Assembly (NCBI RefSeq): GCF_021462225.1
Contig: NC_061794.1
Location: 48,342,414 to 48,406,413 of the forward strand
Length of the DNA: 64,000 nt
Source: Girardinichthys multiradiatus
Lineage: Eukaryota > Chordata > Actinopteri > Cyprinodontiformes > Goodeidae
Direction of reading: 5' to 3'
Part shown: piece after piece, positions 38,884 to 61,851 of the stretch
Position numbering within the stretch: the first letter of the stretch is position 1
Layout of the letters: each line of letters starts with the position of its first letter
Position numbers and translations under genes: made by a program
Notes under the pieces: generated by a model
Told to the model about the DNA's origin: nothing
What the model saw: the letters and a program-made list of their open reading frames with translations, nothing else
Databases searched by the model: none

Positions 38884-39101
38884 TCACTCATATTTTCTCC
38901 TCATGGTGGTTATTCTGTTTTTGACAAAGTACTTAACTGCTCTCCAGTCTCTTTTACTCAGTGCTTGTGGTTCTGCAGCAATGCATCTCTCACAGTCAAG
39001 CTTACCAGGAACCTGATTTGTCAATATGTACTTCCTTAAATGTTTATTTACAGCAGCACATTCCTCTGGGGTCCAGCTTCTTTTCACAACTTTTTCTTTA
39101 C
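38884..39101 (-). CDS. SET/recombinase gene, Myb-like C-terminal exon
   Basis: Acceptor CCTTAG before 39101. [40 protein letters not shown], then [20 protein letters not shown] and a stop at 38886-38884. The spaced W residues with EE resemble a Myb/SANT-like helix bundle. I remember similar C-terminal domains on uncharacterised fish proteins with Crypton-type recombinases; this is not verified. Confidence 0.75.
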
Positions 39102-60100: not shown

Positions 60101-61851
60101 CACAAATAACTTACTAACATCATACAGATAACATAAATGACAGACTCAAGACCTGTAAAGATAGTCCCCAAAACCAAAAGAGCACTTCTAACTACAAGTG
60201 TTCCAGTCAGTTCTGGATTTCTAATCAGGTCCTATAACAGCATCTTTATGGATGTAGTGGAGCATCCTTCAGCCTGACAGTTTAGCTGTTGAAGATGTGC
60301 AGAATTATAGCTGTAATATAATGTGCTTCCATAATGTCAGGTACTACAACTATGATCTAGAAATATAACAAAAGCTTAGATCCACACGGGAGGGCCCCAC
60401 AAGGAGGCACATTTCAGAAATCCATTACTGTTATGCGTGTGTTAGTGACTGGCCTGGTTGGACCCCTCATGGAAGCACGTTTCAACAATCCATCTGAAGG
60501 TGTGTATGCCACTGGCTTGTTTGGGCTCCATGAGGAGAACCATTAAAAACATGTGATCAGATGACTGGCTGAATGCTGTTTATGGTACCTTCTGACTAAA
60601 AAATAGCTTCCCAACACAAGCTAAACTAACAAGCATGTAAACTAAGGGAATGAGAGCAGGTCTCCAAAGTTTATGTCTCACAACAAAGTCTAACTGAATG
60701 TTACCTGTAGGCTGGCATCCTGTGTGATGCTGTCATCAGGGAAAGAGTCCCACGAGGTTCTGGCTGGCTCAGCTACAGCAGTAGGAGCCTGAGAGTCATT
60801 CAAGAGACAAAAATTAAGATTTTGTATACCTAATTAATATTGCAACTTGCATACTTGATTTTATTAACTTACTTTTTCACGCCATGGCCATTTAGAATCA
60901 CCATAGTTGTAATCAATTTCAGTTCCTATTTCTATTTTTTTGATGGCAAACAGGCACAAATGGGGTTGATCATTTACTATTATTTTTTTCATGTTGCAGT
61001 TTGGAGACTTGTGGTTGTCGTTCACTAATCTTCCCAGAGAGCCATCCTCTATTGAAGCATCAATGCTAGGAGAGAAATAAAAGACATCAAACATTTTGCA
61101 TAATATAACTAGTCTTTCAGTAAAATAAAAGTATGCTTACAGAAATAAAAACCTATATAAAAACCTATTTCAAAAGACAAAGTTGTGAGGCAGATTGAAT
61201 GTCTTTTTGACAGCCACACAAAACAAATAATTTTTCAATAGTACATGTATGATGTGTTGTTGAGATATTGCTTCTAAGTGACTATCACTGATTAAGGGGC
61301 TTGAATTCCAGTCTCGTTTTAGAGTTCATAACTCCTCTATAGAAGATATTTGGACATACCACCAGTGACGATTCTGCCATTCAAACTCAAAGAGAAATGT
61401 ACTCTCCTTTTCAGAGTACTTTCTTGTTTGGCATTTATCTGCTGATAGAAGTTGACCCCTGTATTCTAAGACGAAATCTCCTTGTTCAATGGGCTGGGTA
61501 GCAAACACACCCCTTCCTGCAAGGGCATTTTAAATAAACACAATGGTTAGGAAAAATTGAATTATTTTTTAATTTTTACATAAACCATTAACCATATAAA
61601 TGTGGTAATATCTTATGATGTTAAATTCTTCCTTAGAAATCAAAAATACAACACCCAATATGAATTTGGTTGTTTTTTATATGTCATTTTATAAAAACAT
61701 AAATCAATCCTTGGGTAAATGGTCCAAAAATGAGTTTCTTACCTTTGTGATCATCAATAAATCTTTCCATTAATCCTGGTTTGTCCTTTGAAGATTGAAT
61801 GTAAAAGGTTGCTTCATCAGCAGGCTTTTTTCTTGCCTTCCTTTTAGACAT
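38884..61851 (-). CDS. Novel multi-domain gene: KMT5A-like SET domain, repeated exons, Crypton-like tyrosine recombinase, Myb-like C-terminus
   Basis: Exons in order: 61851-61743 (start), 61516-61360, 61065-60873, fifteen repeat exons 60788-60705 to 50780-50682, 49796-49686, 49555-49436, 45916-43942, 43611-43576, 42036-41986, 40240-40160, 39815-39729 and 39101-38884 (stop). Every GT/AG junction closes in phase, predicting about 1,535 residues if all exons are used. Domains: SET (about 40-150), 33-residue repeats (about 154-643), acidic/Ser-rich segments (to 720), two zinc fingers and a tyrosine recombinase (to 1378), Ser-rich linkers, Myb-like domain (last 70). SET domains methylate lysines; tyrosine recombinases cut and rejoin DNA and mobilise Crypton elements. 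Whether this is one transcript, a mobile element or a domesticated gene is not shown by sequence alone. It appears intact. Confidence 0.75.
39729..43611 (-). CDS. SET/recombinase gene, four small phase-1 linker exons
   Basis: 43611-43576 (36 nt): [12 protein letters not shown]. 42036-41986 (51 nt): [17 protein letters not shown]. 40240-40160 (81 nt): [20 protein letters not shown], then ENLTKKK. 39815-39729 (87 nt): [20 protein letters not shown], then SNERSAKKS. All are phase 1-1 with good GT/AG sites. The first two resemble each other (DMxDG...SSQE), as do the last two (TxCxPTSS.SQ...KK), so they look like exon duplicates. Introns contain Tc1 family C and a Tc1 remnant. Confidence 0.7.
40316..41894 (+). 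mobile_element. Decayed Tc1-like transposon, family C, 1,579 bp
   Basis: TA at 40314-40315 and 41895-41896. TIRs of about 200 bp with outer (GTGGAC...GTTAATGAAAG) and inner (CAGGCCTGGACAAAA) repeats, an IR/DR structure. In an intron of the SET/recombinase gene, opposite orientation. Confidence 0.88.
40674..41661 (+). pseudogene. Tc1-like transposase remnant, family C
   Basis: The N-terminal part (40674-41204) starts [20 protein letters not shown] and holds two helix-turn-helix motifs and LWTDETK (first D). A frame change follows. The second part (41308-41661) has [10 protein letters not shown] (second D), but the third acidic residue is lost: NPIKHIW instead of NPIEHIW. Inactive. Confidence 0.87.
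42760..43140 (+). pseudogene. Tc1-like transposase relict
   Basis: Only 3' catalytic fragments are readable, in shifted frames: [12 protein letters not shown], [20 protein letters not shown], and [12 protein letters not shown] where NSPDLNPIE is expected. No terminal repeats were clearly located. Sits in a SET/recombinase gene intron. Confidence 0.65.
43942..45916 (-). CDS. Crypton-like tyrosine recombinase exon with two zinc fingers
   Basis: 1,975-nt exon, 658 codons plus one base, open throughout. Acceptor ATTCAG before 45916, donor AACG|GTATTA after 43942. Order: acidic Ser-rich start ([13 protein letters not shown]), zinc finger 1 [20 protein letters not shown], zinc finger 2 [20 protein letters not shown] plus C, a helical core-binding region, then the recombinase catalytic domain. 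Catalytic motifs: [12 protein letters not shown] (box I Arg), [12 protein letters not shown] (box II Arg, with Thr where many have the HxxR His), FLGHN (His) and HRKHYRLPE (nucleophile Tyr). This matches the R-R-H-Y layout of Crypton recombinases. An ATG at 45925 in the upstream intron could also open this frame if the exon were used alone. Confidence 0.88.
46083..47642 (-). mobile_element. Tc1-like transposon, family E, nested inside family D, 1,560 bp
   Basis: TA duplicated at 46081-46082 and 47643-47644. Ends CACTGCTCAAAAAAATAAAG and, reverse-complemented, CACTGCTCAAACAAATAAAG. Younger than its host element because it interrupts that element's TIR. Confidence 0.93.
46339..47355 (-). pseudogene. 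Tc1-like transposase, family E, frameshifted
   Basis: Start [20 protein letters not shown] at 47355. N-terminal helix-turn-helix domains and a RRGGGRRR hook are open to 46786, with FTDESRF (first D). A frame change near 46800 leads to [20 protein letters not shown] and [10 protein letters not shown] (second D). Another leads to [18 protein letters not shown] (E) and the end RARGGHTQY at 46339. The catalytic triad survives in separate frames, so it is recently disabled. Confidence 0.87.
47905..48865 (+). pseudogene. Tc1-like transposase remnant, family D
   Basis: Related to family [21 protein letters not shown] here versus [20 protein letters not shown]. Many stops and frameshifts. [14 protein letters not shown] has lost the first catalytic Asp (SDES to SAES). 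[11 protein letters not shown] keeps the Glu in another frame. Confidence 0.85.
49436..49796 (-). CDS. SET/recombinase gene, two acidic/Ser-rich exons
   Basis: Exon 49796-49686 (111 nt, phase 0-0): [20 protein letters not shown], then [17 protein letters not shown]. Exon 49555-49436 (120 nt, phase 0-0): [20 protein letters not shown], then [20 protein letters not shown]. Splice sites are ATATAG / ATG|GTAAAG and AACAG / TCT|GTAAGC. Both keep the phase of the repeat exons and of the recombinase exon. No known domain. Confidence 0.65.
49930..50292. repeat. Diverged relict of the 716-bp unit at the array edge
   Basis: Shares scattered blocks with the array intron (CTGTTTAAGGTA / CTGTTTATGGTA; ACAAGCATGTAAACTAA; GGTCTCCAAAGTTTATTTCTCACA) but is clearly older and lacks the exon. 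It marks the left boundary of the young array. Confidence 0.7.
50293..60790 (-). repeat. 716-bp tandem array of exon plus intron: 15 duplicated coding exons
   Basis: Each unit of 714-717 bp carries one exon between TTTTAATTCCAG and GTAACATT. Exons (low-high): 50682-50780, 51398-51496, 52114-52212, 52830-52928, 53546-53644, 54262-54360, 54978-55076, 55694-55792, 56410-56508, 57126-57224, 57842-57940, 58558-58656, 59274-59372, 59989-60087 (all 99 nt), and 60705-60788 (84 nt, different acceptor). The 33-residue repeat starts [20 protein letters not shown] and ends [13 protein letters not shown]. All are phase 0-0, so any number can be included without frameshift. Units are nearly identical, introns included. 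ARTSW is ARNSW in the exons at 57126 and 59274. The repeat is acidic and Ser/Thr-rich, probably disordered; its function is unknown. Confidence 0.93.
60873..61065 (-). CDS. SET domain, second exon
   Basis: 193 nt. [24 protein letters not shown], then [20 protein letters not shown] and [11 protein letters not shown]. The catalytic tyrosine region YNYGD corresponds to KMT5A YDYGD. The usual RLxNHS motif is RLVNDNHKS, with one extra residue, so AdoMet binding may differ. Ends in phase 0 at AAA|GTAAGT, ready to join the phase-0 repeat exons. Confidence 0.9.
61360..61516 (-). CDS. SET domain, first exon
   Basis: 157 nt. [20 protein letters not shown], then GQLLSADKC and [13 protein letters not shown]. 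It matches the start of the KMT5A SET domain (GRGV.AT....GDFVVEY.G.L). The GRGV AdoMet-binding loop is intact. The donor splits the Cys codon (TG|C). Confidence 0.9.
61743..61851 (-). CDS. SET/recombinase gene, start exon
   Basis: The exon runs 61859-61743 after a TTTTTAG acceptor. The first ATG (61851-61849) gives [20 protein letters not shown], then [15 protein letters not shown] plus one base. The basic start KRKARKK could be a nuclear signal. The region continues directly into GRGVFAT of the SET domain, as in KMT5A where GKGRGV begins the core. Confidence 0.8.

What the first reader, a model, noticed from the sequence alone, without database searches (positions are those of the whole stretch)
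38884..61851. A gene joining a histone-methyltransferase-type SET domain to a Crypton-like tyrosine recombinase
Seen: minus-strand exons for a KMT5A-like SET domain, 15 repeat exons, two linker exons, a 658-codon recombinase exon with R-R-H-Y residues, four small exons and a Myb-like end. All junctions are GT/AG and in phase, with a poly(A) signal 200 nt after the stop. Known: tyrosine recombinases of Cryptons integrate DNA; KMT5A methylates H4K20. Inference: a chromatin-modifying domain fused to a DNA recombinase, either as a captured-gene mobile element or as a domesticated host gene. From memory, fish annotations list many KMT5A-like copies, which would fit mobility.
Basis: partly seen in the sequence, partly recalled or inferred. 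Interest (0 to 1): 0.92.

Follow-up and report, generated by a model that had tools for sequence, protein, structure and literature searches.

The report
Jumping-gene recombinase fused to histone methyltransferase
This fish DNA holds one intact gene that joins a histone-methyltransferase-type domain to a DNA-cutting-and-joining recombinase, and relatives with the same joined layout occur in dozens of fishes and a frog and appear to have spread as mobile DNA.

Summary
On the minus strand, 26 coding exons (61851 to 38884) splice with GT/AG junctions into one stop-free 1535-aa frame: KMT5A-like SET domain, 15 tandem repeat exons, two linker exons, a zinc-finger and tyrosine-recombinase exon, four small exons and a Myb-like end. 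The joined layout recurs: 128 of 290 fetched proteins carry both halves; 98 of these could be labelled, from 54 ray-finned fishes and one frog. The halves diverge together (r = 0.78), and the SET is as conserved as the recombinase. Family mobility is supported by 98-100% identical copies on contigs of seven different lengths in a loach, by trees that reject host relationships, and by kept catalytic residues (all five in 248 of 263). The window copy lies beside a plexin-B transmembrane exon, probably in its intron. Unexpected: in 141 of 141 long SET matches the catalytic-motif histidine is aspartate, and 85 of 121 linkers hold tandem repeats. Element ends, copy number here, Crypton membership and enzyme activity are unproven.

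The parts
61743..61851 (-). SET exon 1 (start codon at 61851); an acceptor just upstream implies a 5' UTR exon
61360..61516 (-). SET exon 2 (GRG...EYRG...HW)
   Evidence: (PF00856 4.2e-07)
60873..61065 (-). SET exon 3 ([17 protein letters not shown])
   Evidence: (PF00856 1.1e-08)
50515..60845 (-). tandem array: 15 copies of a 716-bp unit, each with one in-frame repeat exon (84 or 99 nt)
49686..49796 (-). linker exon 1
49436..49555 (-). linker exon 2
43942..45916 (-). zinc-finger and tyrosine-recombinase exon, 658 codons
45530..45586 (-). zinc-finger-like motif 1, C-x2-C-x9-H-x4-H
   Evidence: residues 113, 116, 126, 131, each at least 90% conserved in 26 rows
45281..45340 (-). zinc-finger-like motif 2, C-x2-C-x11-H-x3-C
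   Evidence: residues 195, 198, 210, 214
44531..44533 (-). catalytic Arg I (R464 of the exon)
   Evidence: 254 of 263
44390..44392 (-). beta-hairpin Lys (K511)
   Evidence: 259 of 263
44168..44170 (-). catalytic Arg II (R585)
   Evidence: 255 of 263
44090..44092 (-). catalytic His (H611, LGH motif)
   Evidence: 255 of 263
44063..44065 (-). nucleophile Tyr (Y620)
   Evidence: 261 of 263
43576..43611 (-). small exon c1
41986..42036 (-). small exon c2
40160..40240 (-). small exon c3
39729..39815 (-). small exon c4 (an acceptor 12 nt earlier is also in frame, by eye)
38884..39101 (-).
38682..38703 (-). two AATAAA signals, 181 and 197 nt after the stop

Best explanation
The gene is the single large gene of a mobile DNA element of fishes (also seen in a frog) that moves by a tyrosine-type recombinase. 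SHOWN: one in-frame, intron-bearing gene encodes SET, a repeat-exon linker, two zinc-finger-like motifs, a recombinase core with its R-K-R-H-Y set, and a Myb-like end; annotated proteins with both halves occur in 55 labelled species and the halves co-diverge. STRONGLY INFERRED: family members move within genomes and between host lineages. INFERRED mechanism: the zinc fingers and Myb-like end bind the element's ends; recombinase protomers excise the element as a circle and insert it elsewhere through a tyrosine-DNA bond; the tethered SET domain reads or methylates chromatin (a histone tail, or the recombinase itself) so that the element is recombined, expressed or inserted in permissive chromatin. 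The repeat-exon array is a fast-changing spacer between the chromatin arm and the DNA-joining arm. The window copy is an intact insertion, probably in an intron of a plexin-B gene.
For: Intact model. Both halves in 128 of 290 proteins; at the earlier stage 6 of 227 were SET-only. Co-divergence r 0.78 over 48 representatives, 0 of 999 permutations as high. Mean pairwise identity, n = 39: SET 56.4%, recombinase 54.5%, SET-ZF linker 20.6%. Misgurnus: 17 proteins with nine LOC names between them, seven contig lengths among those with contig data, 98-100% identity in the recombinase. AU tests reject one acanthomorph clade (p 1.5e-89) and one otophysan clade (4.9e-34); a Cyprinodon copy is 88-90% identical to cyprinid copies but 71-73% to Poecilia and Nothobranchius. 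All five catalytic residues kept in 248 of 263. Foldseek PDB: ranks 1-6 are XerH or XerD, E 0.013-0.10. SET: best solved relative KMT5A, 6.5e-23, next family 3.9e-14; Foldseek best SET8, 1.2e-10 (model of P0003). Plexin-B transmembrane exon at about 37375-37190 on the same strand and no ectodomain exon found up to 64000.
Against: No element end, target duplication or empty site was seen. The window's own genome could not be searched, so copy number here is unknown. The recombinase gets no Pfam match and no Foldseek match under 0.001 (rank 7 is an unrelated lyase at 0.14). Against a five-member recombinase profile hhalign gave E 0.018, probability 2.6%; the five references singly gave 0.043-0.39, little apart from five control proteins at 0.11-0.54. 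The element would exceed 20 kb and have 25 or more introns, odd for a transposon. Two Tc1-like insertions in introns, and a third by eye, suggest the copy is not young. The loach contigs may include haplotypes, second assemblies or polyploid duplicates. Tree conflict could partly be old duplication and loss with uneven rates. No expression or activity data.
Confidence: 0.74

Rival explanations
1. The window copy is a host gene, domesticated from such an element, kept at one place in goodeid fishes and used as a chromatin regulator.
For: Open frame over 26 exons despite Tc1-like insertions in introns; its nearest relatives follow host order (Ataeniobius, then Poecilia, then Nothobranchius). Domestication seems to occur elsewhere in the family: the doubled Anableps and Anabas proteins and three damselfish proteins have lost the first catalytic arginine and, except in the second Anableps copy, the other too, while SET motifs remain.
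Against: All five catalytic residues are kept here, unlike in those lineages and unlike the Crypton-derived host genes described in PMC3212892 (passages read). The wider clade conflicts with host relationships.
Confidence: 0.2
2. Two unrelated neighbouring genes, a KMT5A-like gene and a recombinase gene, only look joined.
For: Some annotated relatives show only one half, e.g. P0024 and P0001 or the SET-only P0123; 129 of 290 proteins have a recombinase or ZF match but no SET match by phmmer, some of them single frames on short contigs.
Against: 128 proteins join both halves; all junctions in phase here; the halves co-diverge. P0001 lies on a 2608-bp contig, shorter than the SET-to-recombinase distance here.
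Confidence: 0.03
3. The gene is one gene of a larger element or integrated DNA virus.
For: DNA viruses encode SET domains; a fish adomavirus SET is among the structural matches of the SET half.
Against: No relative confirmed in viral contigs by two pattern-based scans; plexin exons begin about 1.5 kb downstream; apart from the recombinase exon the longest frames between 38.9 and 62 kb belong to Tc1-like stretches. Sequence beyond 64000 is not visible.
Confidence: 0.04

Closest known systems
Crypton DNA transposons (PMC3212892, passages read)
   Same: Tyrosine-recombinase-encoding elements without reverse transcriptase, in animals including medaka fish; some carry an extra enzyme (C48 peptidase in CryptonF-2_PS).
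   Different: No Pfam match to DUF3504; carries SET, zinc fingers, Myb-like end, a repeat-exon array and 25 introns in the coding part; ends unknown.
SETMAR (PMC6326780, start of abstract in a search listing only)
   Same: A SET methylase joined to a transposon recombination protein.
   Different: [quoted passage not shown] here the joined gene is itself multicopy in at least one loach and present in many fishes and a frog, and the recombinase is of the tyrosine type.
KMT5A / SET8
   Same: Best sequence and fold match of the SET domain; equivalents of Y245, R295, N298, Y334, Y336 kept in 141 of 141 long SET matches (numbering recalled).
   Different: The H299 position is aspartate in 141 of 141, with one extra residue after it; joined to a recombinase.
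Crypton-derived host genes KCTD1, KIAA1958, ZMYM2-4, QRICH1 (PMC3212892, passages read)
   Same: Vertebrate genes built on a tyrosine-recombinase core.
   Different: Those lost the catalytic tyrosine and second arginine; these keep them in 261 and 255 of 263.

Membership tests
Tyrosine recombinase superfamily | R...K...(H)xxR...H/W...Y, with H and Y nine apart (spacing in Xer proteins recalled) | tested here: met
   R464, K511, R585, H611, Y620 invariant in 26 of 26; 254, 259, 255, 255, 261 of 263, 16 shorter matches of 279 dropped. The HxxR histidine is a threonine here.
Tyrosine recombinase superfamily | Catalytic-domain fold and profile similarity | tested here: inconclusive
   Foldseek PDB ranks 1-6 XerH/XerD at E 0.013-0.10, rank 7 unrelated; phage integrases in BFVD at 0.03 and above; hhalign E 0.018, probability 2.6, in the right register, single references 0.043-0.39 against controls 0.11-0.54; no Pfam match. 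The catalytic C-terminal part of the window model is of low confidence.
Crypton | Recombinase related to Crypton / DUF3504 | tested here: not met
   No DUF3504 or phage-integrase match among the 25 of 27 families shown for 26 members at E up to 1; no Crypton sequence was at hand for direct comparison.
Crypton | Short terminal direct repeats, circular intermediate | not testable with these tools
   No second copy or empty site available.
KMT5A (SET8) | SET domain closest to KMT5A | tested here: met
   both with the Poecilia relative P0003
KMT5A (SET8) | Intact NH catalytic motif | tested here: not met
   N-D in 141 of 141
KMT5A (SET8) | H4K20 monomethylation | not testable with these tools
   No assay
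Mobile element | Near-identical dispersed copies in a genome | tested here: met
   Met for Misgurnus, seven contig lengths, haplotypes or second assemblies not excluded. Not tested in the window's own genome.
Mobile element | Tree conflict with hosts | tested here: met
Domesticated recombinase gene | Loss of catalytic residues with retained frame | tested here: not met
   Not met for the window copy; met for Anableps, Anabas and three damselfish proteins.

The most novel reading that the evidence does not exclude
A class of vertebrate selfish DNA carries its own chromatin-modifying arm: a SET domain with a family-specific N-D catalytic motif, tethered to a tyrosine recombinase by an exon array that repeatedly expands and is replaced, lets the element alter chromatin where it is excised or inserted, and the whole joined gene passes horizontally between fish lineages; hosts have at least once kept the SET and discarded recombination.
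Probability: 0.35. Interest if true: 0.92.

Novelty: new variant of a known kind. Interest (0 to 1): 0.82.

Why it matters
Transposons usually suffer chromatin marks; an element that encodes a histone-methyltransferase-type domain in the same protein as its recombinase would be a direct, testable case of mobile DNA shaping its own chromatin. It would also explain a set of 'KMT5A-like' and 'uncharacterized' fish proteins as one element family, offer a new vertebrate tyrosine recombinase, and give a natural series from mobile to apparently domesticated copies.

Tried and rejected
Relatives in viral contigs: 1 pattern stretch, 0 confirmed, 43 stretches, 0 confirmed. Prokaryote contigs: 36 stretches, 0 confirmed. 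So no DNA of a second copy was obtained, and ends, target duplications and dN/dS could not be tested. Solved-structure search with the recombinase exon found nothing and with its alignment four weak hits that look like chance. The window-model Foldseek search had no match under 0.001. Within the array, exon and intron variation are alike (2 of 99 and 11 of 617 sites in the 12 units of 716 bp compared), so selection on the repeat exons is not shown. That SET and recombinase are chance neighbours was rejected. Literature: eight answered searches showed no title or abstract start describing this joined gene; the library holds open-licence papers only, and I read passages alone, in PMC3212892, PMC9406493, PMC7599744, PMC9341512, PMC8869645 and PMC5753468. 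Repbase itself was not searched.
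Full report
WHAT IS THERE. On the minus strand, 26 coding exons between 61851 and 38884 join into one 4608-nt frame (1535 aa) with no internal stop and GT/AG at all 25 introns; AATAAA lies 181 and 197 nt after the stop. tblastn with Poecilia latipinna P0003 (1023 aa, SET and recombinase in one protein) recovers the three SET exons, repeat exons, linker exon 2, the large exon, two of the four small exons and the last exon, in order; linker exon 1 and small exons c1 and c2 were not recovered and rest on reading frame and splice sites. 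Order: SET (three exons), 15 repeat exons in 716-bp units, two linker exons, a 658-codon exon with two zinc-finger-like motifs and the recombinase, four small exons, a Myb-like end. The closest proteins to the large exon are from goodeids: Ataeniobius 97%, Girardinichthys 98% over 60% of the query.

THE JOINED GENE IS A FAMILY. A search with the SET part found 115 proteins; the two recombinase searches listed 120 of 225 and 120 of 851, so the counts are of listed proteins, isoforms included. Of the 290 different proteins fetched, 118 have SET+ZF+YR+MYB by phmmer, 26 SET+ZF+YR, 67 ZF+YR+MYB, 55 ZF+YR, 6 SET only, and 18 other part sets. By stricter lengths 128 are joined; 98 of these I labelled, giving 55 species: 54 ray-finned fishes, from Polypterus (a decayed copy) and eel to killifishes, and the frog Ranitomeya variabilis, whose P0228 has all four parts. 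SET and recombinase distances correlate (Mantel r 0.78 over 48 representatives of 99, the two doubled proteins left out; 0 of 999 permutations as high, highest 0.17). Mean pairwise identities over the 39 of these 48 with all four parts: SET 56.4, ZF 45.2, recombinase 54.5, MYB 46.5, linkers 20.6 and 18.4 percent. The SET is as conserved as the recombinase.

IT MOVES. In the loach Misgurnus anguillicaudatus 17 listed proteins are 98-100% identical in the recombinase; between them they bear nine LOC names, and those with contig data lie on contigs of seven different chromosome-like lengths; a second family is 96-100% identical. Haplotypes, a second assembly or polyploidy could explain some of this. 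Pairs at 99-100% on contigs of different length also occur in Festucalex, Chanodichthys, Paramisgurnus and Pimephales. In the 22-row clade that holds the window, cyprinid rows lie among acanthomorph rows; AU tests reject one acanthomorph clade (p 1.5e-89) and one otophysan clade (4.9e-34). The Cyprinodon copy is 88-90% identical to Carassius, Pimephales and Leuciscus copies but 71-73% to Poecilia and Nothobranchius (its SET is incomplete and was not compared). Solea and Carassius gibelio share 82% in the recombinase and 83% in the SET, while Garra and Carassius gibelio, both cyprinids, share 77% and 66%: both halves travel together. Horizontal transfer is the simplest reading; old duplication with very uneven rates is not excluded. 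The Polypterus copy has lost both catalytic arginines, as dead copies should.

RECOMBINASE. R464, K511, R585, H611 and Y620 (exon numbering) are invariant in 26 of 26 and kept in 254, 259, 255, 255 and 261 of the 263 long matches (16 shorter ones of 279 dropped); 248 of 263 keep all five. H to Y spacing is nine, as in Xer proteins (recalled). Global evidence is weaker: Foldseek's first six PDB hits are XerH and XerD at E 0.013-0.10, the seventh is an unrelated lyase at 0.14, topoisomerase I is eighth at 0.38; hhalign against a five-member profile gives E 0.018, probability 2.6, with LR, LGH and Y in the right register, while single references gave 0.043-0.39 and five controls 0.11-0.54; no Pfam family fits. 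I take it as a divergent tyrosine recombinase; 'Crypton' is a likeness, not a tested membership.

SET. The nearest solved proteins are KMT5A/SET8 by sequence (6.5e-23) and by fold (1.2e-10), both for the Poecilia relative. In the 141 SET matches of at least 126 residues (of 160 proteins with a SET match; 19 shorter ones dropped, the decayed Polypterus copy among them), equivalents of SET8 Y245, R295, N298, Y334 and Y336 are kept in 141 of 141, but the H299 position is D in 141 of 141, followed by one extra residue. Residue roles and numbering are recalled, except that PDB titles name Y245F and Y334F mutants. The change may abolish, retune or repurpose methyl transfer; its invariance argues for function.

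REPEAT EXONS. 85 of 121 SET-to-ZF linkers of at least 60 aa (120 fetched proteins, isoforms and near copies included, plus the window model) hold tandem repeats, with unit sequences that differ by lineage. In a less redundant set it is 25 of 39, against 3 of 29 for the recombinase-to-MYB linker and 0 in shuffles; the second linker is much shorter (mean 78 against 309 aa), so that control is not even. Isoforms of one Carassius gibelio gene (1248, 1282, 1316, 1384 aa) differ by multiples of its 34-aa unit. Repeat arrays thus seem to arise again and again at one place. Here the array is recent and shows no sign of selection on exon against intron.

PLACE. A plexin-B transmembrane exon lies at about 37375-37190 and cytoplasmic exons follow from 34272 down, on the same strand. 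No plexin ectodomain exon was found from 37.4 to 64 kb; this rests on frames read by eye in parts of that stretch, six motif patterns and a recalled query, so it is a modest test. The simplest reading is an insertion into a plexin-B intron.

HOST ADOPTION ELSEWHERE. Anableps and Anabas proteins carry SET-ZF-YR twice and align over 1600 residues at 49%; these and three damselfish proteins have lost the first catalytic arginine and, except in the second Anableps copy, the other, while SET motifs remain (the second Anableps SET lacks the YxYG match). They look like former elements kept for the SET.

JUDGEMENT. A joined SET and tyrosine-recombinase gene that is conserved, mobile and horizontally spread in fishes is the best-supported reading. 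The chromatin role is inference. No description was seen in the listings of eight paper searches.

Noticed in passing
P0121 (Anableps), P0122 (Anabas), P0177, P0182, P0188 (damselfishes): Related proteins, two of them doubled, with lost recombinase arginines but kept SET motifs: candidate domesticated forms.
   Followed up: partly
window 50515-60845: 15 copies of a 716-bp unit, 97-100% alike except the SET-side copy at 86-89%; a recent expansion.
   Followed up: partly
window 40325-41871 and 46078-47647: Two Tc1-like elements with inverted arms and transposase domains inside introns of the gene; a third Tc1-like frame by eye at 48386-48865 without a Pfam match.
   Followed up: partly
window 11097-15919: Tc1-like frames at 12387-13385 and 14921-15919, and flanking frames at 11097 and 13631, recur 2534 bp apart: probably a tandem duplication holding a Tc1 copy.
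   Followed up: no
window 28340-31055: Coding-like simple satellite, long open frames on both strands ([14 protein letters not shown] / [11 protein letters not shown]).
   Followed up: no
window 2727-3392 and 31000-37400, minus strand: Kinase fragment with a Pkinase match, SRPK-like by eye, downstream of plexin-B exons; resembles PLXNB3-SRPK3 synteny (recalled).
   Followed up: partly
window 34820-36386, minus strand: LINE-like reverse-transcriptase frames by eye, between plexin-B exons; the frame scanned (35201-35785) had no Pfam match.
   Followed up: no
A0A2S1MK34: A fish adomavirus SET protein is among the structural matches (E 0.005); a possible other traveller of SET domains in fish DNA.
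   Followed up: no
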